Of a stretch of 64,000 nt of DNA, positions 5,871 through 45,290 are shown piece after piece (within the stretch, counting starts at the first letter, position 1; each line of letters opens with the position of its first letter). Origin of the DNA: Tetraselmis striata (lineage: Eukaryota > Chlorophyta > Chlorodendrophyceae > Chlorodendrales > Chlorodendraceae); contig VCJN01003303.1 in assembly GCA_006384855.1 (NCBI GenBank), positions 1-64,000 of the forward strand, in the 5' to 3' direction. The notes under the pieces were generated by a model. That model was not told the origin of the DNA. It made no database searches and saw only the letters and a list, made by a program, of their open reading frames with translations. The translations under genes and the position numbers were made by a program.

Positions 5871-5877
5871 GACTCGA

Positions 5878-8586: not shown

Positions 8587-8721
8587 GTAGTGGCGCGCTG
8601 CTCCTCGCCTCCGATGTGTCGTTGACTGCTGCGGACGGCGGTCGTCGACTGGGTGTTAGTTTCTCCACCTCGGCCGCCCCCCCCCCCCCCCCCCCCCCGC
8701 CCCTTCACCGCTCACAGCGCC

Positions 8722-12041: not shown

Positions 12042-12290
12042 GTTGCGCTAGCTGGTCAGCTAGCGCAAAGGCAGAAGGTGGACTCCCCTCGTGGTGCGGG
12101 TGCGTCATGTAGCAGGGTTGTCGCATGCTGGCGCTAGCGCCGCTGGACATCGGGAAGTCCAAGCGGTACGCGTACCGCGAGTACATGTACTGGTCGCTAG
12201 CATTCAAACTACTGTAGAATCGTAACGTTACCAATACCGGTAACATAATAGCCCGGTGTAATCAAACCTCTATATTACCAATATGACCAT
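12042..12290 (-). repeat. Split direct repeat A2 of the DIRS/PAT-like element
   Basis: A 249-bp copy of 33,554-33,802 in the same orientation, beginning (minus strand) ATGGTCATATTGG and ending with 'gctagcgcaac'. It is flanked on each side by a copy of the B repeat (cattgtggggccgcgtttgc). Confidence 0.88.
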
Positions 12291-15475: not shown

Positions 15476-16301
15476 CTCCGCCTTACGCGGTGACGCATAT
15501 AGTCGGAGTCGGGGCTACAGCTGTCGGCGCGGCGCGCCACACCGTCAGTCGCGTGTCTTTTCGCCGGTTCTGTCGACGTTCTTGTCGCGGTTCTTGGCGT
15601 CCGCCTCGCGGCGTTGCTGTTCCCGCCTCTCGCGCGCCGCCTTGTCCTTTTTCTTCCGCGCCTTGTCGCGGTCGGTGTCGCGCTCCGCTGCTTGCCTCTT
15701 GAAGGTCGCTGATGCCTGTGCCTTGGCCGCAGCCGCGAGCCCGACCTCGAGGCGCTTGTCCTCGCTGCCATGAGGCCGTCGACGACGTTGGCGGAGCGTT
15801 CATGCTCGGCGGTGCCGAAGACTCGGGAGTAGATGAGTCGCTCGGCGACCTGCTCCTCGGGGGTGAGGGCCTTCTTGGCCTTGAAGCGTGGAAGGTAGGT
15901 GAGCCTGGCCTCATCCGCGTCGCCCACTGCTTCAAGCGTGCGATGCGCGGCGTCGAGTAGGTCGAGGGCGTCGACGCGGTCCTGGGTGGGGGTATCGGGC
16001 GCGCGAAGCGTAGCCAGAGCTGTCTTAGCCGCCGCGTTAGCGGCGGCGCGGTAGACGCCAGAGCACAGCAGGTGGCGGTACTCGTCGCGCGACGCAGTCT
16101 TGTTGGCCTCAGTGAGATAGCGGTCGGCCTCGTCGTTACGGGGCCGCCAGAGGCTCGGGCGTGTGGCGCCCGACGGGGGGGGGGGGGGGGGGGGGGGGGC
16201 AGTGTTGGTACGCCCGGGGCAAGAGGTCTTCCCAATCCCGAGGGTCGATGAACACGGCCGCGGCGTCGCGCGCGCCCCCCGTAGCAGCGGGTACAGGGGG
16301 C

Positions 16302-16350
16302 AATATCGAGTCAAAATGGGCACATTTACGGACCCGAAAATGTGCCCTCC
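16302..16350 (+). repeat. Left terminal inverted repeat of the MULE
   Basis: It is the mirror of 33,124-33,171 with two mismatches. An inner hairpin, CACATTT...AAATGTG, lies within it. The outermost 10-12 bp (16,291-16,301) are less well matched between the two ends. Confidence 0.88.
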
Positions 16351-16946
16351 GCGTGATCGCTTAGGCTGGGATATGTACCCACTTTTTGGGTGCATTTCAG
16401 GTGCAATCTATAACTATACGAGAGTACTAACAACGTCAATTCGCCGTGTCCTCTTCGCGCCCTCTGCAGCGTAAAGTACTACCCGCCTCAACCTAGGTGG
16501 CGGCGCTCTTTTGCGCCCCGTGGTGACTCACCCTGTTGGAGATTTCACTCCTCGCCCCACTCTCGAGTCCACACCACTGCAATGCACTCCACTCTCCTTG
16601 ACGTACTTTTGTTGCCGTCATGGCCGACCGTTCTTCTGCCCCGCAGGCCAGCGAAGCCTTTCGCCAGGCCCAAGAGCAAATTCAGCCTTGCATCTCCTTC
16701 CTAGACAGTTTGCCCCTTCAACCGGATCACAGAGACAAGCTTTTCAAAGAGGGTGTGAATGCCGTTGCTGGACAGTTGCTACATGGGCTCGCCCCTTCTC
16801 CGTGTCTGCCTTCGGAGGTAGGTGGACCGTTGTACACCGCGCCTCCATGCGGTACGGGTCCGGAACGGGCCGGTACCGGCCCGCGGAGCCAGCAAAGCAA
16901 GCGCCCAACACCCTCGCCAAGCTCCCGCGAGCGGGGGAGCGCTTCT

Positions 16947-17769
16947 TGTTATGTACTCTACACTGCTGTACTTTGTACTGCGGGAGCCGACGAAGGAGCG
17001 AAGAACTGGCGACTGAGGCGGACGAGAACGAGTACAAGCCAAGCGAAGTACGAGTATGAGCATTGCGAGTGCGAGTACAAGTGAAGGCGAAGTACTGGTA
17101 CGAGGACGACGAGGCGACAGTACGAGCGACTGCAAGGCGACTAGTAGTGCAGGACAGTATTACGAGTACCCACATGGGGTGCGAGTAACCTGTATGTACC
17201 TGCGTACCAGCAGCGGCGATTGTCGTACGCTATGGTGTCACCTGTTAGAGGATGATGATACCAAGCGTTAGATGGAGCGCTGCCTTAGGAGTGTCTTAGC
17301 AGTAGGTACTAGAACCTACTGGAACCATCCAGAACGCTATAGCATTTGCTATAGCAATAGTAGTGAAATATTATATCACTGTGCTGCGGACAGACGAAGG
17401 TGCTAGGAACCTGTCTGTAGTTAGTTGTGTGTTACTAAAATAGCGACGGGCCGCGGATTAGGACCGCACACGTCGATTTTAGTATTAGCCTAGTAGTTAC
17501 ACACAGCACAAGTGGCGGGAATTGGAATCAATACGCAGCGCACGGAATGACGGAAACCAGCGACTATAAATAGGCCGGCAAAACCACCGCCGGGCCAGTC
17601 ACCCAGGTTACCGGCATTCCGGTACTGTAAGAATCCCTTTTCCCAAATCTCTGCTCATTATTCCTGGCCGTGTGGAATAACGATCCAATGGGCCCTCGAC
17701 ACAGCTCCTGCTTTAGGACTATCTATGGCTAGACGACTATTCGGCCTAAGTCCTTAGGGGGCTGTAACA
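16947..17769 (+). repeat. 5' LTR of the complex
   Basis: 823 bp with TGTTA...TAACA ends and a TATA box, TATAAATA, at 17,565-17,572. The primer-binding site TGGTTTCGGAGC follows at 17,772-17,783 and resembles the initiator-methionine-tRNA site TGGTATCAGAGC used by many plant elements. Confidence 0.9.
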
Positions 17770-19587
17770 CCTGGTTTCGGAGCGGTGACCGGAGCACATG
17801 GTTCCGGATTCCACAAGAGAAGCGGCATAGCGACGAGAGCGAGAGGCGAGATAGGGACAGAAGAAGACTTCAAATGTCAAGGATCCTATGGCGGGGACGC
17901 CCACCGAGGATGCGCACCGGCTTTGATAGATGGAGTCAAGTTCGACGTGGCGAGAACGATGTAGCGACGATGAGGAGGATGCGACAACGAGCGAGCGAAA
18001 TTATGAACTAGCGAAGGGACGAAGATCGCGAGTACCAAGGAGCAGCCGAACGTTCGATCTGAGATGTGTAACGATGACGCTGCAAGCTGCGAAGCCATGA
18101 GGGCGGAGCAACGTGCGACTCGCGACCCCAGCTACAGTTCCGACGACGCGAGTTGGCGATGGCGCGACATCAACCAGAACCGACCTGTATCAGCCGTTAT
18201 CGGCACAGTAGCGACTACTGGTAACGAGTTGGTATAGCGAACGAGAAGAACCGCAGATTTTTTTCTGCGCTGAAGAATGAACCTGCCACATGAAAATCGA
18301 ACTCAGAAGACGAAGAAGACAGAACAGCTGTGGTTACCGGTACAACCATGAGGTGCTGGTACGATTAATTTCGTACTCGAGTACAAAACAGCTGCAGAAT
18401 CAGATTCGAGGAGAGCGCTGCGAGATAATGACATGAGCCGTCAGGTGAAAATCCTGGGTGACCACGGTTCAATGTCCGGACGCGCGCATTTCTCTCGACA
18501 TGATGCGGTATGGCGGAGGAGACCCTGCTGCCTGCTGCCAAGACAGAAGACTCGACGACGGCCAACGCGAAGATGGCGCGATGGGAGCTGCGGAGAGGCG
18601 ACAGAGACTCGGCGCGTTACCTACCTGTACATGCTGTATGCTGTACGGTACCGAACGAAGCCCGTCGTACCACAGTAGGAGACACCGAAGCAGCGACTAC
18701 GAATCTACTACTGTGGAGGCCAAGAGTGCAAAATACAGGAAAAACAGGAGGATATTTGCACAAGTATGTCTACGACTCAATGCATCAGAACCAAATACAG
18801 TATCACCGGTATGGGACGGAGGTATTGTACTGCTGCGATGAGAAGCTGACTACGACTACAAATGGCGAGGAGATATCCGGTATGGGACGGTTATCTACTT
18901 GCGGAAGTACTGTATAAGGTACTGGCCGATGATTCCCTCTACCAGCCCTGCTACGAGCTTTGACCGAAATCGAGAGTAGAAAAATCCGTGGACTACATGA
19001 GACTACGGTTCAGCGACGGGCGACTGCGAGCACGAGAGCTGCTACAGGTAGCGACAAGTGTCCCACCTACGGTATCGCGAGCAGCGACGACACACCATTG
19101 ACTTTCTGCTTCGCGATGAATATACCGACGCGCTGCGTGCCAATGTCGACACCGCTGAGATGCCAAGATGCGAGCCTGCTAACTCGGCGAACTGCGACGC
19201 AAGAGCCTTTGGTATGAGATCTTTGACCACGACTACGCGAGTGTGCGTTCCGATGGCAACATGGGGGCGATGGCGCACACGGACGAGTCAAAAGGGACTT
19301 GCGACAGTACGACGCGACGAGGCTGAGCTCGAAGAATGCTGCATTTCTGTGGCTACCCACCGACCGACACCTATCGGTGCCATTGGTGGCGTTTTGCTGC
19401 GACTTGCGACACCACCAGATGATGCTCGACTATGAGGATTTTTTTTTCCAAAGGGACTGCCTCCATGACGAGTGTCACCACTGTACATATCTGTACATAT
19501 TCTGGCTACGCGACTCTACAACGACGACCGAGTTCTGCTGAACGTACTGGCGAACAGCGCGGCCGCTGTTCATTAACAGGGTGAGAG
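17770..19587 (+). other. Internal region of the LTR complex, no retroelement proteins seen
   Basis: 1.8 kb rich in short CGA/GCGA motifs. Open frames are 135 codons or fewer on either strand, and none resembles gag, protease, reverse transcriptase or integrase. A purine-rich stretch, 'agggtgagag', lies directly before the second LTR (19,578-19,587) and is a fair polypurine tract. The element must have moved with proteins from elsewhere. Confidence 0.7.
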
Positions 19588-21262
19588 TGTTATGTACTCT
19601 ACACTGCTGTACTTTGTACTGCGGGAGCCGACGAAGGAGCGAAGAACTGGCGACTGAGGCGGACGAGAACGAGTACAAGCCAAGCGAAGTACGAGTATGA
19701 GCATTGCGAGTGCGAGTACAAGTGAAGGCGAAGTACTGGTACGAGGACGACGAGGCGACAGTACGAGCGACTGCAAGGCGACTAGTAGTGCAGGACAGTA
19801 TTACGAGTACCCACATGGGGTGCGAGTAACCTGTATGTACCTGCGTACCAGCAGCGGCGATTGTCGTACGCTATGGTGTCACCTGTTAGAGGATGATGAT
19901 ACCAAGCGTTAGATGGAGCGCTGCCTTAGGAGTGTCTTAGCAGTAGGTACTAGAACCTACTGGAACCATCTAGAACGCTATAGCATTTGCTATAGCAATA
20001 GTAGTGAAATATTATATCACTGTGCTGCGGACAGACGAAGGTGCTAGGAACCTGTCTGTAGTTAGTTGTGTGTTACTAAAATAGCGACGGGCCGCGGATT
20101 AGGACCGCACACGTCGATTTTAGTATTAGCCTAGTAGTTACACGCAGCACAAGTGGCGGGAATTGGAATCAATACGCAGCGCACGGAATGACGGAAACCA
20201 GCGACTATAAATAGGCCGGCAAAACCACCGCCGGGCCAGTCACCCAGGTTACCGGCATTCCGGTACTGTAAGAATCCCTTTTCCCAAATCTCTGCTCATT
20301 ATTCCTGGCCGTGTGGAATAACGATCCAATGGGCCCTCGACACAGCTCCTGCTTTAGGACTATCTATGGCTAGACGACTATTCGGCCTAAGTCCTTAGGG
20401 GGCTGTAACACTTGGTTTCGGAGCTCCGAAACCAAGTGTTACAGCCCCCTTAGGACTTAGGCCGAATAGTCGTCTAGCCATAGATAGTCCTAAAGCAGGA
20501 GCTGAGTCAAGGGCCCATTGCTGGATCGTTATTCCACACGGCCAGGAATAATGAGCAGAGATTTGGGAAAAGGGATTCTTACAGTACCGGAATGCCGGTA
20601 ACCTGGGTGACTGGCCCGGCGGTGGTTTTGCCGGCCTATTTATAGTCGCTGGTTTCCGTCATTCCGTGCGCTGTGTACCGATCCAATTTCCGCCACCTGT
20701 GCTGCGTGTAACTACTAGACTAATTCTAAAATCGACGTGTGCGGTCCTAACCCGCGGCCCGTCGCTATTTTAGTCATATACTACTAAGTACAGACACGGT
20801 TCCTAGCACCTTCGTCTGTCCGCAGCACAGTGATATAATATTTCACTACTATTGCTATAGCAAATGCTATAGCGTTCTGGATGGTTCCAGTAGGTTCTAG
20901 TACCTACTGCTAAGACACTCCTAAGGCAGCGCTCCATCTAACGCTTGGTATCATCATCCTCTAACAGGTGACACCATAGCGTACGACAATCGCCGCTGCT
21001 GGTACGCAGGTACATACAGGTTACTCGCACCCCATGTGGGTACTCGTAATACTGTCCTGCACTACTAGTCGCCTTGCAGTCGCTCGTACTGTCGCCTCGT
21101 CGTCCTCGTACCAGTACTTCGCCTTCACTTGTACTCGCACTCGCAATGCTCATACTCGTACTTCGCTTGGCTTGTACTCGTTCTCGTCCGCCTCAGTCGC
21201 CAGTTCTTCGCTCCTTCGTCGGCTCCCGCAGTACAAAGTACAGCAGTGTAGAGTACATAACA
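19588..21262. repeat. Palindrome of about 830-bp arms made by two head-to-head LTRs
   Basis: The plus-strand LTR (19,588-20,410) and the minus-strand LTR (20,437-21,262) face each other across 26 bp that is itself a perfect palindrome, centred between 20,423 and 20,424: CTTGGTTTCGGAG mirrored. The centre is exactly the primer-binding-site sequence folded on itself. Arms are roughly 97% identical by eye. Confidence 0.9.
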
Positions 21263-22085
21263 CTTCTTGTCAAAGGGCGGAAAAACGTGTGAGATTCGAC
21301 TGGAGGAAGGTTGGCGATGCAACCTTTCTCACAAGGCAAGCCGCAGTGAAGGAGTTCACTGTGAGATTCAGATGTGACATACGGGTGACGAAGCACTACT
21401 ACTAGCGACTATTATTTATCCGTGAAGGCTGCTGCTGGTGGCGGCACGTCCATCCAGTTACGTGCGAGTACATCCGGTGTTATTGCCGGCGGGCGATAAA
21501 TCCTTTTTGTAATCATTCTGGTAGTCGTACTAGGGCGGTGAGGTGTTACATGGCACTGACGTATAAGGTACAAGGTTGTCCGTGTAGTACCGGGTAGTAC
21601 GCAATATATTTATTAAGCCGGTACCGGGTATCTAGTACGAACCCGGGCGCGATGACGAGTCGTCCTGTGGATAACTACGACTATTAGTACATGGGAGCGC
21701 AAATCGCAGCCGTACGTATTTGGTAACACTGGGGAGTTTTGTGTACATTATAGCTAGTACTGCTGAACGAGCCTGCCCGCCGTCCGATCAAAGGTCGTCA
21801 GATGGGCGGTTTGGCTGCCATGTTTTGCCAAAGAGTGCTCACGTTACATAAATATTCGCGAGGGGGAGGGCGGGGGCAGGAAGCGGTTTGCCGAAGAATG
21901 TTTGAATTACTATATTCGCGACAGCTGCCATCGGGGAATGTGGCCCTGGGGGGGGGGGGGGGGGGGGGGGGGGGGAGGCGGGCGGGCGTGGTCCCCCCGC
22001 CGCCCCCCCTCCCCCCCCCCATCCCCCGCCGCCCGCCGCTCCCGCCGGGGGAGTGAGGGGAGGGGGGTAAGGGGGCGGGGGGTAC

Positions 22086-22675
22086 TGCTTGTTCTTGTTC
22101 TTGCGTGCCGGGGGGGGCCTCCGCTTCGACGATCTCGCTGCCTCCGCCTCCGCCTCCGCCTCCGCCTCCGCCTCCGCCTGCGCCTCCGACTCCGCCTCCG
22201 ACTCCGCGACCGTCAGTTTCTTACCTCGGCGCTTCTTCACTGGCCTCTTCCGCTTCTTGTCATCCGTCAGTGTCCTCGCCACCCCGGGAGGCTGTGCCGT
22301 CGACGACGCCGCCATGAGCTTCCTTACCTTGGCGTCGGGACGCCCCCTGTGCCCAGACGCCCACAACAAGCCACAATCGTTTCGCCTTTAAGCGGCTGAG
22401 GATGCGGCCTCCTCGGCCACCACGAGTTGCGCCGCTGGCACTGTGGAAGCCTTGGCGTTGAGGTGGGCCTTACGGCGCTCCCGGACGAACCTGCACGCGG
22501 CACAAGTTAGCCACGAGTGGGTGCGTGCTAATGTGGAGGGTGGAATGTTTTGTTGCGCGCCCACCTTGTCACGCGTTTCCTCATGTCTTTCTCGTCCTCC
22601 TCGATGCCGGCGGCGCGGACACGCGAGACAACAAGGCTCGCCGCCCACTTTTGCCCGGGGGGCGAGGTCTGCCAT
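22086..22675 (-). CDS. Small Cys-containing and NLS-rich gene of CACTA copy X'
   Basis: Counterpart of 8,722-9,286 in X. ATG at 22,675 (MADLAPRAK) gives a Cys-bearing frame (CCLACPRR ... CAACRFVRERRKAH) to a stop at 22,388. A second frame, from about 22,369 to 22,086, gives the KKRKRPVKKRRGKK cluster and an acidic EAEAE run longer than in X. Here the last codons are not followed by the stop present in X. A TATA box lies upstream (about 22,795-22,802, minus strand). Confidence 0.45.
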
Positions 22676-23049
22676 GGCGCTGTGAGCGGTGAAGGGGGGG
22701 GGGGGGCGAGGTGGAGAAACTAACACCCAGTCGACGACCGCCTTCCGCAGCAGTCAACGACACATCGGAGGCGAGGAGCAGCGCGCCACTACTATTTATA
22801 TGCACGTATTGTCAAGAGCTAGTCGGTGCGGCATTGTGTCGGTGTAATTTCGCAATGTTTATTGTTGAAGTAGCACGGCGTAATGAATACGCGGTTTCGC
22901 CGAGTGAATCCGGGATAATATGTGCGGTAGGGCGCGCGTATATGTGCGCGACGAATGTGCGCGCGCAGCGTTGTGCGGCGGTGTGCGGCGGTGTGCACCG
23001 ATGTTAATATAGTGTGAATATTATATCGGCCGTAGACGATCGTAGACCG

Positions 23050-24720
23050 CCCGTGCTTGTAAATAAGCGACAATGGATCACGTCATGCTCCGGTTGTACT
23101 CCTACACTTCCTCCACTTTGGCGGGTGGGGCGGGGGGGGCGGGGGGGGGGGGGGGGGGGGGGTCCTGTCCTTATTACTTGCATCGGTGGACGTGCTGGAT
23201 ATGGAGGTCACCGGGCACATCGCGTGGGTTCGGAGCAGTTCATTCGCGCCTTCTCGTCTTGTTTGCAATCGTCGCCCTATCTAATCCAATGCAGGGTGAG
23301 TAGCGGGACACTGTGCCCCCCCCCCCCCCCCCCGGTTTATGTAAACAAATATCTAGCCATGCATGCGCCGCAATCGGTACCCAATGAGCGGGGTATGTGA
23401 CAGTGGTTTCGGAGCAGTGCAAGCATTCCGTGCGTGTGCACAAGCACGTAGGACTGGGAATGAGGCGGGGGTTGCGGATGGAGTGCATTGGCGGTCCATA
23501 GAATAGCGTGTTCTTGGGGTTTAGGCTGCATCAGACGCCGTATTCCCATCCATCCGGCACGGAATGTCCGGTTTTCACACGTTTGTGTGTTAATATAGTG
23601 TGAATATTACGCGTCTTTTACGCCGGGTGGATGGGCATCCGGCGTCCGATGCACCCCAAGTATTTGCAGCACGCTACTCTACGCACCGCCAATGCACTCC
23701 GCAAGCCCCGCCTCCATCCGCGTCGGAACCGGTAGTAAGTGTTGTTGTGTGCGCACATCGTGACAACATTACACGGTGGCAATTGCAATTATTAGCGGTG
23801 GATAATGTGAAGGCGTTTTCGAAATCGACAGAGAATGAGGCGGTGCTGGCGGAGTGCATTGGCGGTGCATAGAATAGCGTGTTGCTGGGGCTTTGGCTGC
23901 ATCGGACGCCGTATTCCCATCAATCCGGCACGGAATGTCCGGTTTTCACACATTTGCGTGTGTTAATTTAGTGTGAATATTACGTACGCGTCTTTTACGC
24001 CGGGTGGATGGGCATCCGGCGTCCGATGCACCCCAATTATTTGCAGCACGCTAGTCTGTGCACCCCCAACGCACTCCGCAAGCCTCGCCTCCATCCGCGT
24101 CGGAATCGGTAGTAAGTGTTGTTGTGTGCGCACATCGTGACAACATTACACGGTGGCAATTGCAATTAGCGGTGGATAATGTGAAGGCGTTTTCGAAATC
24201 GACAGAGAATGAGGCGGTGCTGGCGGAGTGCATTGGCGGTGCATAGAATAGCGTGTTGCTGGGGTTTTGGCTGCATCGGACGCCGTATTCCCACCCATCC
24301 GGCACGGAATGTCCGGTTTTCACACATTTGCGTGTGAATATATATAGTGTGAATATTACGCACGCGTCTTTTACGCCGGGTGGATGGGCATCCGGCGTCC
24401 GATGCACCCCGAATCTCACCAACACGCTACTCTACGCACCCCCAACGCACTCCGCCAGCCCCGCCTCATTCCGCGCAGGTCCTACGTTCCATTGTATGTA
24501 TATACATACGTACATGTACTGCTCCGAAACCAGCCCAAACTTAATGAGTGCACAAGTGTAAATGGGGGGGGGGGGGGGGGGGGGGGATATGGCGGCGGGG
24601 CATCCACTCACACATACCCCGGCGATGCATGACAGATATTACATGCCGTGGCGGGTCGGCGGGCCGACCCGGGGGGGGGGGGGGGGGGGGGGGGGTCTAT
24701 TCAACTACACGTGCGACAGT
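23050..24720 (-). other. Segment present only in CACTA copy X'
   Basis: 1.67 kb between the two shared halves of the element. It begins beside the 'ggccgtagacgatcg' shared edge and ends beside the 'cgaaacgacactg' shared edge. It holds four G/C-runs, the palindromic tandem array (23,480-24,453) and an ATG-initiated frame at 23,073 whose likely exon ends at a donor, CAG|GTGAGT, at 23,295. Either X lost it or X' gained it. The palindromes hint at a gain by fold-back DNA. Confidence 0.6.
23480..24453. repeat. Tandem array of three ~372-bp units, each centred on a ~225-bp palindrome
   Basis: Palindromes lie at 23,480-23,700, 23,851-24,077 and 24,225-24,453. In each, 'ggagtgcattggcggt', 'gctgcatcggacgcc' and 'cccatccatccgg' on the left return inverted on the right, around an AT-rich centre, 'tagtgtgaatatta'. 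The spacers, about 150 bp, are near-identical and encode the same short frame (DNITRWQLQL, VKAFSKSTENEAVLAE) each time. Confidence 0.85.
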
Positions 24721-24823
24721 GTCGTTTCGTGGAGCAGTATATGTGCCCGGCCTCATTTATACCGCCCCCTACCTGCGCTGCATGGTCCACCCCTACGAAT
24801 TACTTAGCACAAACCGCCATTAC

Positions 24824-25282
24824 TTAATAGGAACCTAGCACAGCCATGCTTATATGCCCGCTTTGCCGATCAACTTCTACGCACTTTCCGTCCCTCAACC
24901 GCCGGACATGGGGGTTAAGCCGCCAGCCTCGGCAGTTGCTTAGCCAGACTTGGCATCCCGTACCGTGCCCATGGCTTCGCAGCTCTGCCGCCGGCACACG
25001 CCGAGTCCGGCGCTTGCTGCCGCGGGGTTGCGCACGCATGCACGCACGGTAATACGCCGCCGACGCCCCCACGCTTACTTCCACCACCTTCGCCAGCCGC
25101 AGCTTCGCACGCCGTTCCGCCGACATACGAAACGCACGAATCCCCCCCCCCTCCCTTAAGTCACCCGGATCGCCTTTCCGTATCACACCCTCATCGGCAG
25201 CTTCCACGTCCGCCGGCGGCCACGCAAGCGCGTCGATGTCCATACCGTCTTTGCCAACGGGGTCCTCCCCCACACCCATCAC
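24824..25282 (-). CDS. Fused ORF created by the internal deletion of CACTA copy X'
   Basis: It starts in the acidic tail of the BED-finger exon (GEDPVGKDGMDIDA), passes the deletion junction near 25,155 ('ggtgacttaag' to 'ggagggggg'), and continues in frame into the Arg-rich MSAERRAKLRL segment that is separate in X. The fusion may be chance. It is a normal outcome for internally deleted, non-autonomous CACTA copies. Confidence 0.4.
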   Translation of the reverse strand: MMGVGEDPVGKDGMDIDALAWPPADVEAADEGVIRKGDPGDLREGGGIRAFRMSAERRAKLRLAKVVEVSVGASAAYYRACMRAQPRGSKRRTRRVPAAELRSHGHGTGCQVWLSNCRGWRLNPHVRRLRDGKCVEVDRQSGHISMAVLGSY

Positions 25283-25329
25283 ATCGTCCTCCGAGACCGG
25301 CGCCGGCGGGCCGTTTCCGACGGCGGCAG

Positions 25330-25568
25330 CTACTCCTGCTGCCGCCCCTGCCGCTGCTGATGCTGCTCCTGCCGCCCTGCTGATGCTGCTTGTAATAAGG
25401 CGGCCTTGCGGTGCAACTTAGCCTCACGCTTCAACGAGTGGCTACAGTTCGGGTATTTCCGGAAGTGCCGCTCTCGCGCCGTCCTTTCACTACTGCCCGT
25501 CACGATGCCGTGGCAGTGCGTGCATGTGTACACGCCATTCTTCGACACACTCGATATCCATCCCTCTC
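25330..25568 (-). CDS. BED-type zinc-finger exon of CACTA copy X'
   Basis: From ATG 25,575 or the nearby start the frame reads GWISSVSKNGVYTCTHCHG, then RHFRKYPNCSHSLKR, the same Cys/His pattern as 4,416-4,826 in X with several substitutions. A Gln/Ala-rich tract follows. The finger residues are intact in both copies, which suggests that end-binding was selected for until recently. Confidence 0.5.
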
Positions 25569-28033
25569 CCGGCATGCATGCTCCCTCGCGCGCGCGGGGG
25601 GGGGGGGGGGGGGGGGGGGGGTTGAGAGTTGGGGTGGATGTAGCCCACCACCGGCAGGGAGCACAAATGCGAGTGCGCGGCTGTCCGCGCTTGGTTCAGC
25701 GGTGAGCGGCGGTGACCGCCAGGCGACCCCGTACTTCATGCGCGTGCTGGGGCGTTACACAATCATCAGCAGTTAGGGCGGCTGCATTAAAACGCGCACC
25801 TACGAACACCACCTACCGCCTACCACCTACCGTACCACCTACATCCGCCCACACCTCCGCCCGTCGTGCCGCACATCGCCGCACACCGCGGGGTCAGCGA
25901 TGTGCAGCGATGTGCAGCGAGTACGTGCAGCCGCCTGTACTTAGCCCGGGTACTCCGCGTCGGCGCGCGACACGCGAGCCCGCGTGGGCATATCAATTTG
26001 ATGAAATTATCGAAACGAGAAATTCATATAGTACTTTACAGGTCGCGCGCGATAGTCGTCGCTACTCGGTATGAATCCACGTCCCTCGTCCGTCCCGTAT
26101 CGTCCCCGTATGTCGTCGTTCGTCACTAGAAGGGCACACTTGCGTCACATCTGAATCTCATAGTGGTTGACCTGGATGATGGACGAATGGAGGCACCAAT
26201 ATACCAGCAAGGGCGCGTATGTGAGCGCTCCTCACTCGTGTTGTCTGAAGCACAGGCATATTGTACCGGCATCTTGGCATGTTCCACGATTGTATTCACT
26301 AACAAGGCTTGGCTATCGGCAGGTGTATAACTGCGCCTCCCACGTTAATTGCCCCGCGCATCTCCGCATCTGTCATGATCCGGTGAGCAAGCGTTGGGAG
26401 ATGCAGCGCGACCACCGCCTCCACTCGCAGCAGCAGGTTGACGTCGTCGTGGACGGCAAAGTTCGCATTCCTCAGCGAGTTAAAGCCCAGATGAAGGAGC
26501 ACATCGACGACATGCCAATGCGACTTGTGGAGAAACTTAACAAAGAAGACATGAAGATTGCGGACGCGAGGGCGTGGCGAGTGGCGTTTAAAGCCTGGAA
26601 AAAGAGCCTCACCCGCGCAGAGAAGGGGCCCCGGGCCTACGAGTCTATTGCCGATCTCAGATATTGGGCTCGTCGCAACGAGATGCCACCTCTGAACTCC
26701 GGTGACAGCGACGCGCCGTTGGAAGACGACAAGTTGGTTGTCCTACAGCTCAACGAGGAGGCCAAAGGAGTGGTGTTCACAACGATATGCCTTTTTAGTA
26801 CCTTGAGCCTCGCCGAAACGGGAAGTCTCCCAATCTGCCTCGTCACGGACGGCACGCACAAGATTCACTACGGCAAGTGGCTCCTGTTGACACTGGGCAC
26901 CCACTCAATCGAGTATGACATGGAGAAGTACGACCTCGTTCACAAATTCCGCCCAATCTCGTTCTGCTTCGCGCAAGAGGAGGATGGGGGCAGCGATGAC
27001 CCTCATGTTCCAGACGACGATGGACACGCACAAGATGTTGTATGGCATTTCGCCCAACGTGCGCGGGCTCTTGAGCGACAAAGGGGGCGGAATTCACGTC
27101 GCCAAACGAACCGTTTTCCCTACTGCGAGGGTGCGCCCTCCCCCCCCTCTCCCCCCCCCCTTCCCCCCGTTTGGGGCTTCTCGGAGGAATCTCGTGACAA
27201 TAGGTACGAATCTCCCCCGCTGAGGCGGTCACGCTGTGCATCTCTTGCAGACCATTGGGTGTTGGATACATGTCCTTCACAAGTTCCAGTTCAAGAAGGG
27301 TACGACGAGCATCAACGGTCGACGTGTCCAGGTATGCCGAGGGGAGCACGAGTGGAAGGTGTGCGAATTGTGTGTGAAGGTGATTCATTCTTGCCGCTCC
27401 GAGGAACATGCACATGCAGTCGGGACCAAGTTGTTGCAAGTGATGGCCAGGTCAGCCCCCGGCCCGGTCGCCCAGTGGTTCGAGGACAATTATTTGGGTG
27501 CCAACCTGGACTGGTGGTCGAGCGCCTCCACCTTCGTGGGAGTTCCCGCCAGGAATAATATCATGGAGGGGTGGCACAATGCTGCCAAGAACGCCTTTCC
27601 CAAGGGATTGCGCAACCCCACCGACTCCCTAATGGAGAAGCACTTCCCAAAGTGGCTGGAGGACGAGACGTACAAGCGCGGCAGCAAGTCTATCAACTCT
27701 GCCTTCCGCATGGAGCTCTCGACGGACGTCCACTTCGCGATAGACTATCTGCATGCAGCGGGAAGCCATATGGAGGTCGACGAGGCGTTGTATGTCGTGG
27801 GCGACCCCTTCAAGATCGGCAATCGCAGCGTCACTAGACCAGCGGTACTGAAGTACCGCAACAGCTTGGCGGGAAATGTGGGAAGCAGACCGCAATGGAC
27901 GATTCAGGCGATTGAGCGGGACTTCCTCTTCCTGAATCGAGTGACCCTTCAAAACGGCCAGCCAAGATGCGACTGCGAGCGCTTCTGGCTGTACGGCATC
28001 TGCTCCCACCAGCTTCTGTGGGGTGCCCTATGA

Positions 28034-28985
28034 GACCCTACGGAGAAGATGGGACTCGAGAGGCTGGCAGGCGACATGAGCGACCGTCCAGGCAGGCATC
28101 GGCCTCGCGGTCCTACAAGGGCTCTAGTGCGGCAGCCCCAAGACGGCGGGAACGCGTCGCAGCGCCGTCGCGAAAACGCCGTGCCGCAGCGCGAGAATCT
28201 CCGGGCGGCAACGGGTACTGGGGCTCCATCTCCTTCCGCCTCATCCCCGGCCGCGGGCGGCAGTGGACGCAGGGCGAGGCGTTAATCAAGGAAAAGTGCC
28301 CGCAGATCGTAATAGTATGGCTTTTGTAAAAGGCGTAAGTTTGTAATGGCACTCCGCGCTCCGACGTGCGACTCTTCCTTCGTTCTGCGAGGAGAATTCG
28401 CAGACGGTACAACGTATAAAATCTCTTAACACTATGTGACAATAACGCTTCACTTTGAAGCTGGTTATACCACAGAGGCTATTTTTTGTTTGCCTCCCCA
28501 GTGTCTCCAATAACTGCGATGTCATATTAGGCGTTTCCATAGGTCAAAACATTGTATCCGGATATGCAATGGGATGATGGAACTATACACGAGAGACAGG
28601 CAGATGCAACACTGTTTGGTTGTGAGATCGAACCCAGACCAGCAGTGGTGAGCATCTTCTCATCAGATGGCTAAGCTGCTACATATCTCTGCTGAACCAG
28701 TTAAAAGTGCAGAGGCAGCATCAATTTTTATAGCCACTCTGAAAGAAGACTACTAGTACCCAGACAACACAAAGAAAGTCAGATGATCTGCAGGTAAATA
28801 CTGATTTTGGCGAACAATATGATGTAAACGGCTGCCCCGAACGCGGCCCCGGCCGCGGCGCGTTGGCGCCCGGCTGCCCCGGCCGCGGCGCGTTGGCGCC
28901 CTGCTGCCCCGGCCGCAATAAGAAAGGAAATGCGGTTTGTGAAATCGACGGACGAGAGACGTTTAAACTCTAATCTGCTGTCGAA
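28034..28985. other. MULE middle: possible transposase tail, then space between convergent genes
   Basis: 28,034-28,285 may continue the transposase in another frame with an Arg/Gly/Pro-rich tail (SDRPGRHRPRGPTRALVRQP), a common disordered MULE C-terminus. 28,286-28,985 is AT-richer and gene-free. It holds 2.5 copies of a GC-only 33-bp unit ('gccccggccgcggcgcgttgg', 28,829-28,917), like the repeat at 5,878-5,992. Confidence 0.5.
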
Positions 28986-29031
28986 AACAGTTTATAATGA
29001 TCGTCGATTATGACTAATGTTGATTCCTTTG

Positions 29032-29870
29032 TCACGGACCATACACGAACCCACGTTGCTTGGCGAGGTGCTCCGAGAGATGCGCCGTTAAAGTCGCCGA
29101 ATCTCTTCCGACGACCAACCACAAGGCGCGTTTGCTGGTGTCGGGGTTTCTTGGGTGCTTCGACGCGATGATAAGTACACGACCCGTTGTCAACAGACTG
29201 TCGAGGTAGTCCATTCGTGGGAGGGGGGCTTGCGTCAAGTAGGTGCTCGGAATCTGCACGCAGCAGATATCCGCATTGGAGGCCGCCAGCAGCGGAAGGA
29301 GAAAGTCCAAGTGACTGAACCAAGGCGACGTCACGACGACAAAGGGCTCGTTGCACAGGGCAGTGGCCTTGTCGTGTGTTTCCGGCGATAAAGCGTCGGC
29401 GACGAAGTGGGACACGCGAGACGGGTTGATGTCACTCAATATCACCCTCCTGGCCCTCCCGAACAGAGCGTGTGCCGTACCGGCAAAGCCGCTGCAGGGA
29501 TCCCACACGCAGACCTGTCGCCAGGTCTTTACGCAGGCCGTCAAGTAGTGATACTCCCACGGAGAGGTGTAGGTGCACGGTGGGTTGTTGCCCAACATCT
29601 TGCGGTAAAGAGCGTGCCCGCGTTTCAGCGTGTGCTCCGACCACGTGCCAGGCATCCCCGCAGTCAAGCGAGCTGCGTACGTTGACAGCGTACCACCAAT
29701 CTCCGGTGAAATCCGGCGCAACATCATGTTTGAAAGGTTCCACCACGCACGGAAGTCGGGTACGGAAAGCGTCTCGTGGTTACAAGAGGTCGGAGCGATA
29801 GTACACGGGTTTGTACGCGAGAGATGCGGGCGTTCACCTGCCCCCACTGCGGAGGTGCGGGTAATCCCAT
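29032..29870 (-). pseudogene. Methyltransferase-like domain, end of the MULE's leftward coding region
   Basis: The minus strand gives AWWNLSNMMLRR, then VWDPCSGFAGTAHAL, VILSDINPSRVSHFVADAL, VVVTSPWFSHLDFLLPLL and a final ALWLVVGRD strand. DP-x-SG-x-AGT resembles the S-adenosylmethionine-binding motif I, SDIN the acidic motif II, and TSPWF the (D/N/S)PP(Y/F) catalytic motif IV of amino-methyltransferases, with Trp replacing the second Pro. A DNA or RNA methyltransferase fold is plausible; activity is uncertain. It joins the upstream zinc-ribbon-like part by a frame change in a G-run near 29,850. Such a gene in a MULE would be accessory to the transposase, for example by marking element DNA; that is inference. 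Confidence 0.5.
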
Positions 29871-30530
29871 CCCTCTCGGTTAATTCTCTCCACCCTCCGC
29901 ATCTCTTGCTCGTCAGTCTTGCCTGCGGTGGCCTCAACCACCGCTGCTTTGACGTCCTCGAGGATGTAGTCGTCCTCCCCAATGTGGGCCTCCGGGCTCC
30001 ATTGCCGCATCTCTTTCGCCGCCGCCATGGTTCTCGCTGTCTCATGCATGCGACGGTAGGCCTCGTCCTTGTGGTCGACTTCAGGCAGGAAGGCAGCCAT
30101 GCCGGGGACGTGGTAGGACAGAATTTGCCAATCCGGTCCTGGCATCATGGCGCCTGTGTTTGAGTGCAAGCTCAGGAAGATGCGGAAGCAAGGGCTGACA
30201 CCCGCAACTTCCTTGCATCTCGGGCATCTTGTTTCGAGCGCATGGTTGACGCCTCCCTTGGGTGGGCTGGCGTGGACATCTTGTGCAGGCAAGAGAAAAG
30301 CAAGACCAGGGCGCGAGTATGTCGCAGCGTCCTCGTTTCCATCGCAGACGTCCATGCGGTACCGGTCGTCCGCGACGCCGAGGGGAACGAGAGATTTGCT
30401 CTGCTCGAGGCGCCCAGTGCAGAGATTCCGAACCTTCCGGAGCTCGGCAAGGACCTCCGGCCGATTCTGCTCCACCCACGGCACGACGCCAAGCGACGAG
30501 GCTGCAGCCACTTCCCACTGAGCGAAGATG
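29834..30530 (-). pseudogene. Unrecognised domain with CPRC motif, upstream of the methyltransferase-like part
   Basis: A 225-codon minus-strand frame reads VPWVEQNRPEVLAELRKV, then DRYRMDVCDGNED, ETRCPRCKEVAG and PGPDWQILSYHVPGMAAFL, ending in a helical acidic stretch. CPRC suggests half of a zinc ribbon, but I see no clear second Cys pair. Codon content and hydrophobic spacing look like real protein. It belongs to the same leftward coding region as its neighbours. Confidence 0.45.
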
Positions 30531-30713
30531 TAGTGAGAGTCACACGCGAGGGTGAGATTCCACCCTACTGGTGTCTAAAACACAATGGGACTGTGGAAGA
30601 CGAGAAGGGGTGTTGGGGGAGGGGGGGAGGCTCACGATTCCAGGTGCAGCCCACTTCAAGGCGTCGACGATAGTCACATCTCTCCCCCTCCGGACGGCGG
30701 TCAGTGGCTCACA

Positions 30714-31290
30714 TCAATTGAGAAAGATGATGAGGAGGAGCCCCCCCGCCACGCCATCTACATGGGCAGAACCCGAGCCGCAGTCCGGGTCTGCCATGAC
30801 GAGGGCCTTGTGCCGGGCAATGTAACCGGGGGACGAGATTCGTAGCTGCCGGTGAGCTTCTTGGACATACTCGTTGCAAATCCCCCGCAGCTCGTTGTAC
30901 ACAAGCCGGTGTTCATCGGAGGCCAGGAAGGCTCGCATGTTCACCGTGAAGTCGACCCCCCCCCCCCCCCCCCGCAGTTTGAGGTCATCGGGGCATGCGG
31001 GTCGTGAGGTGTTAGAGGTCGTTGGTGAACAAGGACGTAAATAAGGAATGGGAAAGGGGGCTGGTGTCACCACTCATGTCGAGATGCAGCTGCTTCCTGC
31101 CGCCTCCAATGAAGGTCCACGCCTTCTCCTCACCAAGGGAACCGGCAAGACGTGCAGCGACCAGCATGTCCCCTAGGTCAGCGACGCGGTCGCAAAGGTC
31201 TTGGGACCCAAAAAACGAGCGGACGCGTGTTTGAAGGAAGTCTTGGTTGCCGACAAGAGTGGCGACGGTGGGGTCGGTGATTGGCGGAGA
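30714..31290 (-). pseudogene. Domain with an HxD motif, possibly oxygenase-like
   Basis: The upstream exon reads TVATLVGNQDFLQTRVRSFF and KAWTFIGGGRKQLHLDMSG and ends at a GTGACACC donor near 31,070. After an intron ending in a C-run, the next exon begins FTVNMRAFLASDEHRLVY and reaches GSAHVDGVAGG and LLLIIFLN before a stop at 30,714. His-x-Asp followed by a hydrophobic strand recalls the iron-binding start of 2-oxoglutarate oxygenases (AlkB, TET/JBP or PHYH types). The second His and the Arg of that family are not visible, so the assignment is weak. If correct, oxygenase plus methyltransferase would be a DNA-modification pair. Confidence 0.35.
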
Positions 31291-31639
31291 TTCCCGACAA
31301 GGCGAGGCGCGACAAGTCGCTCAGCGAGGGGCGTGGGAGCATGCTGCCCACGAAGGGGAGGGAGAGGAGCATACCGCTGGAAGCCGAGCCTGGGTGCACT
31401 TGGAGTGCTCCCTGTCCTAGGCCGGCAGAAGACTGTCGGTGCGAGAGTAGGAGGCCGAGATGTCCGCGCAGGCGGCGTTACGGGCTTTGCGTCCCGAGAT
31501 GAGGGCTTTTTGGGCGGAGATGTGGGTCGGGGACGCAGAGATGGGGCACCGCCATGGGAAGATGTGGCAAGGCGACTTCCAGCAGCGGCACCCGAAGGCG
31601 CCTGACGGCTTGACCGGGTTTCGCGTTTCGGCTTAGGCG

Positions 31640-32811
31640 CCTAGAAGGGGTCGTCGTCCTCCAATTCTTTCGCCATCTTCAAAGAAGGACTCGGCCCGCG
31701 CTTCTCGGAATGCTTCCTACGCAGCTTTATGGGCGACAAGGTGGTCTTGCCTCCTGTGCTGAGCGCACCGTGAGATGGGCACCCGGAGCTCCATACCTTC
31801 TGGGCAAGGGAAGAGGTCCACGATGGCGTGGAGGCAAGGCATGAAGAAGGAGTTCGAGTTGGGCGACACGTTGACCACGTTGCCAATGACTCTTGTCAAG
31901 AGCTTGTGATGCTCCTTGTAGTCGTCGGGATGCCCGTCCTGTGGTTCGGGCTAGGTGGCGAAGTACGCAGGGAAGTCCCGCTCGTAGCAGTTCCAGTCGC
32001 CGAGCATTGGGTCGACAAGTGGCGCTTCTTGTTGAAAGGGGGTCGTGGAGATGGTCTATGCAGGGAAAGGGGGGGGGGGGCGTGTGAGAATCTTTTCCCT
32101 CACGCGCGAAGATGCGCACACGTTTGAGGTTATGTTGACAAGGGGCGAGGGGTTACCATTTTGCTCCCACTTGTGGCGCTTGTGGCGGGGCTCGTTTCTC
32201 CAGGCGGACACCCTCCGACAGTATTGGGCCCCTCCTCCTCCTCCTCCTCTTCCTCCTCCTCCTCCTCCTCTTCTTGTCCGTGCTCATCCTCATGAATCGT
32301 GGCCACAGGTTCACCTTGACCGGCTCCAGACTGTTTGACATCGGTTTGGGTGAGTTGAGATCCCTGATATGCGCGATGGCGAGGTGCGCTTAACGCAGCC
32401 CACGGCGCCGAGATGAGTGATGCTAACGAAGATGGGAGTCCGCGTACCGTTGGAGTCGCTCCGGGGAGTGGGTCCAAAGGTGGCACGCCTTGAGGCTGGG
32501 GGTTAGGCTGAGGCCCCGGCTCGGCCAAAGGCTGCGAATCTCCGTACCAAGTAAGGCCATGGCGGTCCGCTTCGATGTTGCCCACCGCTCGGTTGCATGG
32601 GCCTTATGGGCTGAGTCGTGGGTATTGGAGCCTGAGACGCCCTCCTACCCGAACGCAAGTGCATCTGCGGAGAATCTCGCGCCATGGGGGTCACTAGCAG
32701 TGCGTCGGGAGCCGTCGTTGGCTCGAAACCAAGCGCAGCTGCAGATGCCCCCGCCACCGGAGTCTTCAACCGGGCAGAGGTGCGGTTTCCTTTGCGAGGA
32801 CGGTCTGCCAT
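31640..32811 (-). pseudogene. N-terminal part of the MULE leftward coding region, Pro-rich and acidic
   Basis: ATG at about 32,811 opens MADRPRKGNRTSARL. Pro/Ala-rich sequence follows, then (after a G-run frame change near 32,590) GNIEADRHGLTWYGD, a run of fourteen Glu encoded by 'cctcct' triplets, a likely intron (donor GTAACC near 32,155, acceptor CATAG near 32,057), and a compact part with GDWNCYERDFPAYF and VIGNVVNVSPNSNSFF, ending LEDDDPF at 31,640. At least one in-frame stop is present. I do not recognise a family. Confidence 0.4.
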
Positions 32812-33123
32812 GCTTTTGTGAACCAAGATGCGTGAAGATGTCTCCCTGAACAAAAGCGCGAGGGTGCTTGCGAGTGATAGAAGAGTGAAAAGCACAGCGG
32901 CGGAGTAGCATTCGAGACAGAAGCGGGTAGTATGGACTGGTAGCGACGCATCTCGTCAAGGGGCGGTGGACAGATGTGTAGTACATAGTGCAGTATAGGT
33001 GAAGGGTACCTCGTACAGTGTTGGCAAGAATGTGTGAAAGGCCAGTTTCACAGTACATTCGTACGGTATTGGGCGTTACTCAGTTTTTGCACTCCCCTTG
33101 GGGGGTGCAAAAACCGAGTTAAG

Positions 33124-33171
33124 GGGGGCACATTTTCGAGTCCGTAAATGTGCCCATTTTGACTCGATATT
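33124..33171 (-). repeat. Right terminal inverted repeat of the MULE
   Basis: Reverse complement of the left end at 16,302-16,350. Just inside it, at about 33,087-33,119, is a second small hairpin, 'ttgcactcccc' against 'ggggggtgcaa'. Confidence 0.88.
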
Positions 33172-33199
33172 TGCCCTTTTTCCCGTAGCAGCGGTTGTC

Positions 33200-33456
33200 C
33201 GGGCGTCGTGCTCCGGCTCCTTGCCACCCTCGCCGACTTTGTCGTCGTCCGAGGGAATGTCGCGCTGCTCCTTGTGCTTGTCGTTGTCCTGTTCGTCCAA
33301 GCGGGTCGATAAAGCGTCCACCTTCAACGCCAGCGCTTGCAGTAACGCAAGCGTTGTCGTGTCCCGTGTCGTGTCTGTCGGCTCCGCGGGCGTTTCGGCC
33401 AAACTGTCGGCTGGCGTTGCCTTCGTAGGGTCTGCCGCCTTCTTTCCGCATGCCAT
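33200..33456 (-). pseudogene. Gag-like start of the DIRS/PAT-like element
   Basis: The minus strand reads MACGKKAADPTKATPA, then a helical block (LALLQALALKVDALSTRLDEQ) and an acidic, Lys-rich part. Short coiled-coil N-termini like this are usual in gag-like proteins of DIRS/PAT elements. It lies between repeat A1 and the MULE insertion. Fossil. Confidence 0.5.
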
Positions 33457-33553: not shown

Positions 33554-33802
33554 GTTGCGCTAGCTGGTCAGCTGGCGAAAAGGCGGAAGGTGGACTCCCC
33601 TCGTGGTGCGGGTGCGTCATGTAGCAGGGCTGTCGCATGATGTCGCTAACGCCGCTAGACATCGGGAAGTCCAAGCGGTACGCGTACTGCGAGTACATGT
33701 ACTGGTCGCTAGCATTCAAACTACTGTAGAATCTTAGCGTTACCAGTACCGGTAGCAGAATAGCCCGGTGTAATCAAACCTCTATATTACCAATATGACC
33801 AT
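33554..33802 (-). repeat. Split direct repeat A1 of the DIRS/PAT-like element
   Basis: The outer (5') copy of the 249-bp A repeat. Its outer edge, ATGGTCATATTGG on the minus strand, marks the element's right border at 33,802, next to unrelated sequence. No target duplication is expected or seen. Confidence 0.88.
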
Positions 33803-38830: not shown

Positions 38831-39698
38831 TGTCACAACCCCCTTAGGACTTAGGCCGAATAGGCGTCTAGCCATAGATAGTCCTAAAGCATGAGCTGAG
38901 TCGAGGGCCCATTGGATCTTTATTCCACACGGCTAGGAATAATGAGAAGAGATGTGGGAAAAGGGATTCTTACAGTACCGGAAGTCGGTAACCTGGGTGA
39001 CTGGCCCGGCGGTGGTTTCGCCGGCCTATTTATAGTCGATGGTTTCCGTCATTCCGTGCGCTGCGTATTGATTCCAATTCCCGCCACTTGTGCTGCGTGC
39101 GTGTAACTACTAGACTAATACTAAAATCGACGTGTGCGGTCCTAATCCGCGGCCCGTCGCTATTTTAGTAACACACAACTAACTACAGACAGGTTCCTAG
39201 CACCTTCGTCTGTCCGCATCACAGCGGTCATTCATTAGCTATTCATGCGCGCACGAGACGTTACTCGCACATGCTATAGCGTTCTAGGTGGTTCTAGTAC
39301 CTACTAATACTAAGACTCCCCTAGGGCAGCGCTCCATGTAACGCTAGGTATCATCATCCTCTAGCGGGTGACACCATAGCGTACGACAATCGCCGCTGCT
39401 GGTACACAAGCGCGCGTAAGGATTACATGTTACTCGCCCCCTACGGGTACTCGTAATGCCGTTCTGCACTAGTCGCTACTAGTGCAGAACCTAAAACCTA
39501 AACGCCTAGTAGTTGCTCGTACTGACGCCTCGTCGTCCTCGTACCAGTACTTCGCCTTTGGTTGTACTCGCACTCGCCTTGCTCGTACTCGTACTTCGCT
39601 TGGCTTGTACTCGTCATCGTTCTCCTCAGTCGCCAGTTCTTTGCTGCTCCTTCGTCGGCTCCAGCAGTAAATTGTACATCAGTGTAGAGTATATAACA
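38831..39698 (-). mobile_element. Solo LTR of the 16.9-21.3 kb family
   Basis: A full-length, clearly diverged LTR (TGTCACAACC at the left, TATAACA at the right) lies on the minus strand. Flanks CCCTC (38,826-38,830) and CCCTA (39,699-39,703) are a probable 5-bp target duplication with one change. It is 868 bp, longer than the young copies. It is an old insertion reduced by LTR-LTR recombination. Confidence 0.85.
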
Positions 39699-39829
39699 CC
39701 CTACCTTTCTAGAAATGTTTACTACCGGTAATTGGGTTGGGTTTTCTAGTAATTGGGTTTTTCTCCTTCCATCATTGTCTACTGTCTACTAGACGATGTA
39801 TGTATGGCACATGTACGATGCTAGTACGT

Positions 39830-45109: not shown

Positions 45110-45290
45110 AGCATATTAGTGAACGGATAACAGACAGAAAACAAACAAGCTCGGCAGCGGCAGAGCTGCCAGACTCCACCAGCCCACCACCGTATACTGC
45201 TGTTCAGCTCCTTGTGCCCCCACAGTCATACGCTTCCGCATTGACACACGTCGAAGTCCTTACACGAATCCTTACCCATACTGTGCAACC

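What the first reader, a model, noticed from the sequence alone, without database searches (positions are those of the whole stretch)
29032..32811. MULE carries a convergent coding region with methyltransferase-like and HxD (oxygenase-like) domains
MuDR-type elements have a convergent second gene of unknown function (mudrB). Here the convergent region contains an apparent SAM-binding motif (DPCSGFAGT), an SDIN acidic motif, TSPWF, and further upstream an AHVDG motif. If both domains are real, a plain DNA transposon carries a nucleic-acid modification module, which could mask element DNA or affect silencing. This is my best candidate for an undescribed system in the window.
Basis: partly seen in the sequence, partly recalled or inferred. 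Interest (0 to 1): 0.8.

Follow-up and report, generated by a model that had tools for sequence, protein, structure and literature searches.

The report
Transposon carrying a DNA methyltransferase-like gene
A broken copy of a Mutator-type jumping gene carries, facing its transposase gene, a second gene that ends in a methyltransferase-like domain resembling DNA-modifying enzymes of bacterial viruses, while the suggested second (oxygenase) enzyme could not be confirmed.

Summary
I found the element's ends: a 9-bp target duplication (GTAGCAGCG, 16281-16289 and 33185-33193) outside inverted repeats of about 61 bp. The MULE thus spans 16290-33184; it holds an LTR-type and a CACTA-like insert, and its transposase gene is broken. 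The convergent minus-strand gene (about 32811-29032, start uncertain) lies inside the repeats, in the mudrB position. Its last segment (29778-29032) is very likely a class I SAM methyltransferase: profile comparison with a phage DNA-methyltransferase family (phrog_799) gives P=1e-5; best of 200 shuffles 0.012, best of 113 other window frames 0.0032. The catalytic loop is TSPWF, not canonical [DNS]PP[YFW]. The oxygenase claim is not supported: HxD is at chance frequency and two 2OG-oxygenase profiles fail. The central segments stay unassigned. Methyltransferase accessory genes are in print for other algal transposons (PMC12477816); my searches found none for a MULE. No second copy could be reached, so stability and selection are untested.

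The parts
16281..16289 (.). left 9-bp target site duplication GTAGCAGCG
   Evidence: this 9-mer occurs only twice in the window, on either strand, at the two element ends
16290..16350 (+). left terminal inverted repeat of the MULE
   Evidence: inverted match 16288-16350 / 33185-33123, 63 bp, 88.9% identity, aligned
16620..16817 (+). candidate first exon of the transposase gene (MADRSSAPQ...), ends at a GTAGGT donor
   Evidence: open frame read; inferred
16947..21262 (.). nested LTR-type insert (LTR, internal part, LTR, extra inverted LTR) with 5-bp duplication CTTCT
   Evidence: self-comparison, end sequences
21357..26165 (.). nested CACTA-like insert, ends CACTGTGAGATTC.../...GAATCTCATAGTG, duplication GTT, inside transposase coding sequence
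   Evidence: sister copy at 3812-11869
26166..28033 (+). rest of the MULE transposase gene: zinc-binding N-part, DDE residues by reading (VTDGTHK, LLSDKGGG, NNIMEGWH), SWIM-like end CDCERFWLYGICSH; frame break near 26985
   Evidence: segment with LLSDKGGG against a Transposase_mut profile P=0.013, 0 of 60 shuffles as good
29032..29778 (-). last segment of the convergent gene: class I SAM methyltransferase domain (WDPCSGFAGT, SDINP, TSPWF, GRVLII); exact exon start not fixed
29838..30574 (-). internal coding segment of the convergent gene, function unassigned (holds DVHASPP and FRIFLSLH)
   Evidence: open frame and sliding codon-position GC; no family match
30636..30956 (-). internal coding segment with AHVDG; in-frame TGA at 30714-30716
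   Evidence: no family match
31071..31300 (-). internal coding segment (ITDPTVATLVGNQDFL...)
31797..32055 (-). internal coding segment (...GDWNCYERDF... HHKLLTRVIGNVV...), in-frame TAG at 31951-31953 unless this ends an intron
32151..32811 (-). proposed N-terminal part of the convergent gene: candidate start MADRPRKGNRTS at 32811, proline-rich and acidic stretches; exon limits unclear
   Evidence: base composition does not favour 32811-32506
33123..33184 (-). right terminal inverted repeat of the MULE
33185..33193 (.). right 9-bp target site duplication GTAGCAGCG

Best explanation
This is a dead copy of a two-gene, MuDR-type Mutator element of a eukaryote, probably an alga (a guess). In the mudrB position, convergent to the transposase, it carries a multi-exon gene whose protein ends in a methyltransferase domain of the phage DNA amino-methyltransferase type. 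Shown: element ends, target duplication, convergent layout, methyltransferase-type homology. Inferred: the intact protein bound element DNA through its unassigned N-terminal part and put a methyl group on an exocyclic amino group of a base (N6-adenine or N4-cytosine), marking the element's own DNA to tune transposase binding or to counter host silencing. I found no evidence for an oxygenase domain.
For: 9-bp duplication at the ends of the inverted repeats, and an empty-site join across which a frame of the retroelement target reads on. Convergent gene inside the repeats, with coding-type base composition over most of its segments. Profile match to phage DNA methyltransferases (A1, 35 sequences; its seed matches phrog_799 at E=6.6e-37): P=1e-5, against best 0.012 of 200 shuffles and 0.0032 for the best of 113 other window frames of 130 aa or more. 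Colinear motifs W[DE]PC[AS]G, SDI.P, DAL, [IV][IV]T.PW and GRV. With 21 N6_N4 methyltransferases, a family not chosen by similarity, the best local match also falls on motif I (P=0.027, 3 of 60 shuffles as good). Fold-search trend. Weak PADLOC row MTase_II at motif I, E=0.071 (DUF499 scores nearly the same, 0.078). Precedent for opposite-strand methyltransferase accessory genes in algal transposons (PMC12477816, passages).
Against: No curated family matched the domain (Pfam, PHROGs, NCBIfam; PDB sequences). The profile A1 was reached from a weak tblastn hit (E=6, one of 4 plasmid records, the other three unannotated or hypothetical; 3 phage records at E=5 were hypothetical proteins), so its P-value carries some selection. 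Motif IV is TSPWF, with tryptophan in place of the second proline, so activity is uncertain. No match to a Dam (PF05869) profile of 4 sequences (P=0.15, 13 of 60 shuffles as good). Only one copy, with stops. Splice sites are not verified; the GT/AG pair 29837/29773 does not fit in phase. A methyltransferase fold alone does not fix the substrate.
Confidence: 0.58

Rival explanations
1. Captured host gene: a Pack-MULE-like event in this copy picked up a host methyltransferase gene, which has no role in transposition.
For: The gene seems to have several exons; additional MULE reading frames are often assumed to come from the host (PMC6446971, passages); only one copy could be examined.
Against: It fills the mudrB position in convergent orientation, from close to the right inverted repeat (candidate ATG 32811, repeat at 33123), beside a transposase gene rather than in its place.
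Confidence: 0.25
2. Methyltransferase acting on RNA or protein rather than DNA.
For: RlmJ (rRNA), fibrillarin and DOT1L are frequent among the top fold rows; single-sequence data cannot fix the substrate.
Against: The best sequence-profile relation found is to phage proteins listed as DNA methyltransferase; the TxPW-type loop fits amino-methyltransferases (recalled).
Confidence: 0.15
3. Two-enzyme protein: 2-oxoglutarate oxygenase plus methyltransferase.
For: HxD in AHVDG, followed by GGLLLIIFLN and, in the next segment, GLAFLLPAQDVHASPP and FRIFLSLH, which by eye resemble late strands of such folds.
Against: HxD is at chance frequency. hhalign against 2OG-FeII_Oxy_3 (26 of 27 fetched sequences): P=0.35, 54 of 100 shuffles as good; against 2OG-FeII_Oxy_2 (16 of 16): P=0.62, 85 of 100. 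No Pfam or PDB match. The model is uninformative, pLDDT 32.5. Tet_JBP could not be tested as a profile: 0 of 396 genomes gave a member.
Confidence: 0.08
4. Chance open frames and motifs; no gene on the minus strand.
For: GC-rich DNA gives long frames by chance (36 of 200 shuffles reach 248 codons); stops are present.
Against: Profile match with controls; codon-position composition across several segments.
Confidence: 0.03

Closest known systems
[quoted passage not shown]
   Same: DNA transposon with an accessory gene on the strand opposite to the transposase, carrying a predicted N4C/N6A-type methyltransferase
   Different: Here the transposon is a MULE (9-bp duplication), no ParB match was found, and motif IV is TSPWF; sequence relation to those proteins not tested (no sequence held)
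MuDR (maize) mudrA/mudrB
   Same: two genes between inverted repeats; convergent order in MuDR is recalled
   Different: mudrB is described as of unknown function (PMC6446971, passages); homology to this gene not tested
VANDAL/Hiun MULEs with VANC anti-silencing protein (PMC5735166, abstract)
   Same: MULE accessory protein thought to act on the epigenetic state of the element
   Different: VANC induces loss of DNA methylation; here a methyltransferase-type domain
phrog_799 phage DNA methyltransferases (A1; seed L017:911-1432)
   Same: colinear motifs I to IV and the C-terminal GRV strand; P=1e-5
   Different: phage proteins have EPCAGDG and TNPPW; here DPCSGFAGT and TSPWF, with a long N-terminal part of unknown kind
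Mariner elements of large viruses with methyltransferase genes, and Fanzor1 captured by MuDr and other elements, then proposed to be a methyltransferase (PMC3627910, passages)
   Same: DNA transposon with a (proposed) methyltransferase accessory gene
   Different: the mariner genes are of another superfamily and match Methyltransf_26 or a C5 domain there; Fanzor is an OrfB/TnpB relative, not a SAM methyltransferase fold (recalled)

Membership tests
Mutator-like element (MULE) | 8-11 bp target site duplication | tested here: met
   9 bp GTAGCAGCG, only at 16281 and 33185
Mutator-like element (MULE) | terminal inverted repeats | tested here: met
   63-bp match, 88.9%, of which about 61 bp lie inside the duplication
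Mutator-like element (MULE) | MULE-type DDE transposase | tested here: inconclusive
   residues by reading; no Pfam MULE match at E<=10, only DUF7612 at 0.056. Of 4 pieces against 7 Transposase_mut sequences, the one with LLSDKGGG gives P=0.013 (0 of 60 shuffles as good), the last exon 0.075 (2 of 60), the other two 48 and 47 of 60
MuDR-type two-gene layout | second gene convergent to the transposase, inside the repeats | tested here: met
MuDR-type two-gene layout | second gene homologous to mudrB | not testable with these tools
   no mudrB sequence held
Class I SAM methyltransferase (phage DNA methyltransferase type) | profile-level homology above controls | tested here: met
   P=1e-5; none of 200 shuffles and none of 113 other window frames of 130 aa or more as good; profile found through the query
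Class I SAM methyltransferase (phage DNA methyltransferase type) | glycine-rich motif I and acidic end of strand 2 | tested here: met
   WDPCSGFAG ... SDINP, aligned
DNA amino-methyltransferase (N6A/N4C) | catalytic [DNS]PP[YFW] (motif recalled) | tested here: not met
   TSPWF in its place; works-like claim kept, membership lowered
Fe(II)/2OG oxygenase | HxD...H...R on a double-stranded beta-helix | tested here: not met
   HxD at chance rate; profile tests at shuffle level; model uninformative
TET/JBP oxygenase | Tet_JBP profile | tested here: inconclusive
   no Pfam match; no member fetched for a profile test (0 of 396)
Algal ParB-methyltransferase accessory protein | ParB-like domain | tested here: not met
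   no ParB match in a three-frame Pfam scan of 28999-33399 minus at E<=5; a diverged or intron-split ParB could be missed

The most novel reading that the evidence does not exclude
A MuDR-type MULE whose mudrB-position gene is a self-marking DNA base-modification enzyme, in the boldest form with a second catalytic (oxygenase-like) domain in the unassigned centre, used to mask the element from host silencing.
Probability: 0.1. Interest if true: 0.8.

Novelty: new variant of a known kind. Interest (0 to 1): 0.5.

Why it matters
The role of second genes in Mutator elements is largely open. A methyltransferase in that position would make it testable whether DNA transposons write their own base marks, in parallel with the methylation-lowering VANC proteins of plant MULEs, and would extend to the Mutator superfamily a transposon accessory type now in print for an Ectocarpus Sola1 element and other algal transposons.

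Tried and rejected
Oxygenase reading: tested with Pfam, PDB sequences, tblastn to plasmids (1 weak record) and phages (2 weak records), a model, and two oxygenase profiles; nothing above chance. A Tet_JBP profile could not be built. Relatives in IMG/VR: none for the methyltransferase segment, the transposase exon or the central segment; in GTDB contigs only the transposase exon was searched as a protein, with none found. A TSPWF pattern scan gave 1 viral stretch and 15 prokaryote stretches. Of these 16, 10 gave an in-frame match in my scripts, and none of the 10 looked like a methyltransferase with an upstream motif I; the other 6 (L002-L005, L009, L010) were not looked at further. Dam-type (PF05869) relation, considered because DIRS elements carry such domains (recalled): P=0.15, 13 of 60 shuffles as good, with 4 of 6 fetched sequences. 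Extended similarity between the two subterminal regions, suggested by both candidate proteins starting MADR: not above shuffles (70 of 300 as good). BFVD fold search of the methyltransferase model: 15 of the 50 rows shown are named methyltransferases, the others unnamed, uncharacterised or unrelated, none at E<=0.001. Exon 31300-31071 by tblastn to plasmids: 1 record at E=10, unrelated. Transposase exons: a single row each in PDB (E=0.36) and NCBIfam (E=0.051), taken as chance. Papers opened: passages of PMC12477816, PMC3627910, PMC11065753, PMC6446971, PMC13317346 and PMC6431247; abstract and outline of PMC5735166.
Full report
Setting. The window has no held genome, is GC-rich with apparently spliced genes, homopolymer runs and many repeats, no Rfam match at gathering score, a CCT-motif protein at 45123-46493 (E=1.4e-13) and a reverse transcriptase match at 14118-15308 minus (E=4.6e-7). 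I take it for a eukaryote; that it is an alga is a guess from its transposons.

Element. An inverted match of 63 bp (88.9%) links 16288-16350 and 33185-33123. At its outer edge the 9-mer GTAGCAGCG stands at 16281-16289 and 33185-33193 and nowhere else in the window. Joining the two outer flanks with one copy of the 9-mer gives a minus-strand frame that begins MACGKKAADPTK and reads on across the join for about 45 residues to a stop. Another frame is open over the whole join too, so this is supportive rather than decisive. The target looks like a retroelement with 249-bp direct repeats of 94% identity at 12042-12290 and 33554-33802. So the MULE covers 16290-33184. Two later inserts lie in its left half: an LTR-type complex at 16947-21262 with CTTCT duplication, and a CACTA-like element at 21357-26165 with ends CACTGTGAGATTC and duplication GTT, whose sister copy lies at 3812-11869. 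The second insert splits transposase coding sequence (VRFDWRKVGDATFLTRQAAVKE before it, LTWMMDEWRHQYTSKGAY after it). The transposase gene ends at 28033 and has a frame break near 26985. The copy is dead.

Transposase. By reading, it has MULE-type D, D, E positions and a SWIM-like CxC...CxH end (both recalled patterns). No curated family matched at E<=10 other than a weak DUF7612 row (E=0.056); single chance-level rows came from NCBIfam and PDB. Of four pieces tested against 7 Transposase_mut proteins, the one with LLSDKGGG gives P=0.013, better than all of 60 shuffles, with its D aligned to the D of STDNLTG in that family; the last exon gives P=0.075 (2 of 60 shuffles as good); the first piece (48 of 60) and an off-frame piece (47 of 60) give nothing. 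I rest the MULE assignment mainly on the ends, the duplication length and the layout.

Convergent gene. Minus-strand segments with coding-type codon-position GC lie between about 32055 and 29032. The proposed N-terminal stretch from an ATG at 32811 is open but its composition does not favour coding, so the start is uncertain. Proposed exons switch frame at GT/AG pairs such as 30635/30575, which fits in phase. The pair 29837/29773 does not, so that frame switch may be an intron elsewhere or a frame break (my reading). An in-frame TGA lies at 30714-30716, and a TAG at 31951-31953 unless the latter ends an intron.

Methyltransferase. The last segment reads YTSPWEYHYLTACVKTWRQVCVWDPCSGFAGTAHALFGRARRVILSDINPSRVSHFVADALS...PFVVVTSPWF...GRVLIIASKHP...RALWLVV. 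No curated family matched, and the PDB by sequence gave nothing. tblastn at E<=10 gave 3 phage records (hypothetical, E=5) and 4 plasmid records, one of them annotated class I SAM-dependent methyltransferase (E=6) and the other three unannotated or hypothetical. The annotated one aligns colinearly over 126 columns (32 identities). Its relatives are common in viral contigs (566 confirmed stretches, 80 kept) and it belongs to phrog_799, DNA methyltransferase. Against a profile of 35 sequences (the seed and 34 of the 80 kept) the window segment gives P=1e-5, probability 82%. Controls: 200 shuffles, best P 0.012; of 114 window frames of 130 aa or more, the frame holding the domain gives 1.5e-5 and the next best 0.0032. 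The profile was found through the query, so the value is not free of selection. Two less biased checks point the same way. With 21 of 30 fetched N6_N4 methyltransferases the best local match is again motif I to strand 2 (P=0.027, 3 of 60 shuffles as good); with 4 Dam-type sequences there is nothing. In a fold search of a poor model (pLDDT 44.5), 42 of the 50 best PDB rows are by title SAM-dependent methyltransferases, fibrillarins or spermidine synthases, which share the fold (recalled). Three more are chains of ribosome-assembly complexes not named by chain, and five are others. The rows come from few proteins (mostly DOT1L, RlmJ, fibrillarin, spermidine synthase, ZMET2), none reaches E<=0.001, and no control model was searched. 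In the viral library 15 of the 50 rows are named methyltransferases. I take the methyltransferase domain as very likely. The catalytic loop TSPWF lacks the second proline, so amino-methyltransferase activity is likely in kind but not shown.

Oxygenase. HxD occurs 67 times in 614 window frames (64,016 aa), about 0.73 per 700 aa, so AHVDG carries no weight. The joined central segments match no Pfam family at E<=10 and no PDB sequence, and only weak rows in plasmids (1 record) and phages (2 records), none of them an oxygenase by name. Profiles of 26 and 16 bacterial 2OG oxygenases give P=0.35 and 0.62, with 54 and 85 of 100 shuffles as good. The fold attempt, on a read-through that contains some intron residues, failed (pLDDT 32.5). 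A Tet_JBP profile test was not possible. By eye, DVHASPP and FRIFLSLH in the next segment would be where a second H and an R are expected, but this is not evidence.

How it may work. Shown: a convergent gene within a MULE, with a methyltransferase-type end. [quoted passage not shown] A MULE accessory protein with epigenetic action is known from Arabidopsis: VANC, which induces loss of DNA methylation (PMC5735166, abstract). A survey of 1631 MULEs (PMC6446971, passages) holds no occurrence of 'methyltransferase' or 'dioxygenase' in its main text. A 2013 paper reports Fanzor1 in MuDr elements and proposed Fanzor to be a methyltransferase (PMC3627910, passages). I found no report of a SAM methyltransferase domain in a MULE in the searches. 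The library lacks most subscription journals, and the Bostrychia paper cited by PMC12477816 was not among the six rows listed.

Verdict. Real element, convergent gene very likely real, methyltransferase domain very likely, oxygenase not supported. New variant of a known kind.

Noticed in passing
3812-11869 and 21357-26165: Two copies of a CACTA-like element with TIR CACTGTGAGATTCAGATGTGAC and 3-bp duplications (ATA, GTT); they differ by several internal blocks.
   Followed up: partly
12042-33802: Retroelement with 249-bp direct repeats (94%) and an RVT_1 match, into which the MULE inserted; minus frame 12321-12926 looks like a tyrosine recombinase by eye.
   Followed up: partly
16947-21262, also 3108-3749, 372-703, 38831-39705: An LTR-like repeat family of about 840 bp, once as a complete LTR-internal-LTR unit with an extra inverted LTR abutting it.
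   Followed up: partly
28846-28916 and 5882-5989: Related 30-bp GC-rich minisatellite units between the two convergent MULE genes and inside the other CACTA copy; VANC targets in Arabidopsis often form tandem repeats (PMC5735166 abstract).
   Followed up: no
33079-33118: 40-bp near-palindrome (CTCAGTTTTTGCACTCCCC/GGGGGGTGCAAAAACCGAG) just inside the right inverted repeat of the MULE.
   Followed up: no
45123-46493: CCT-motif protein (PF06203, E=1.4e-13), a possible host gene.
   Followed up: no
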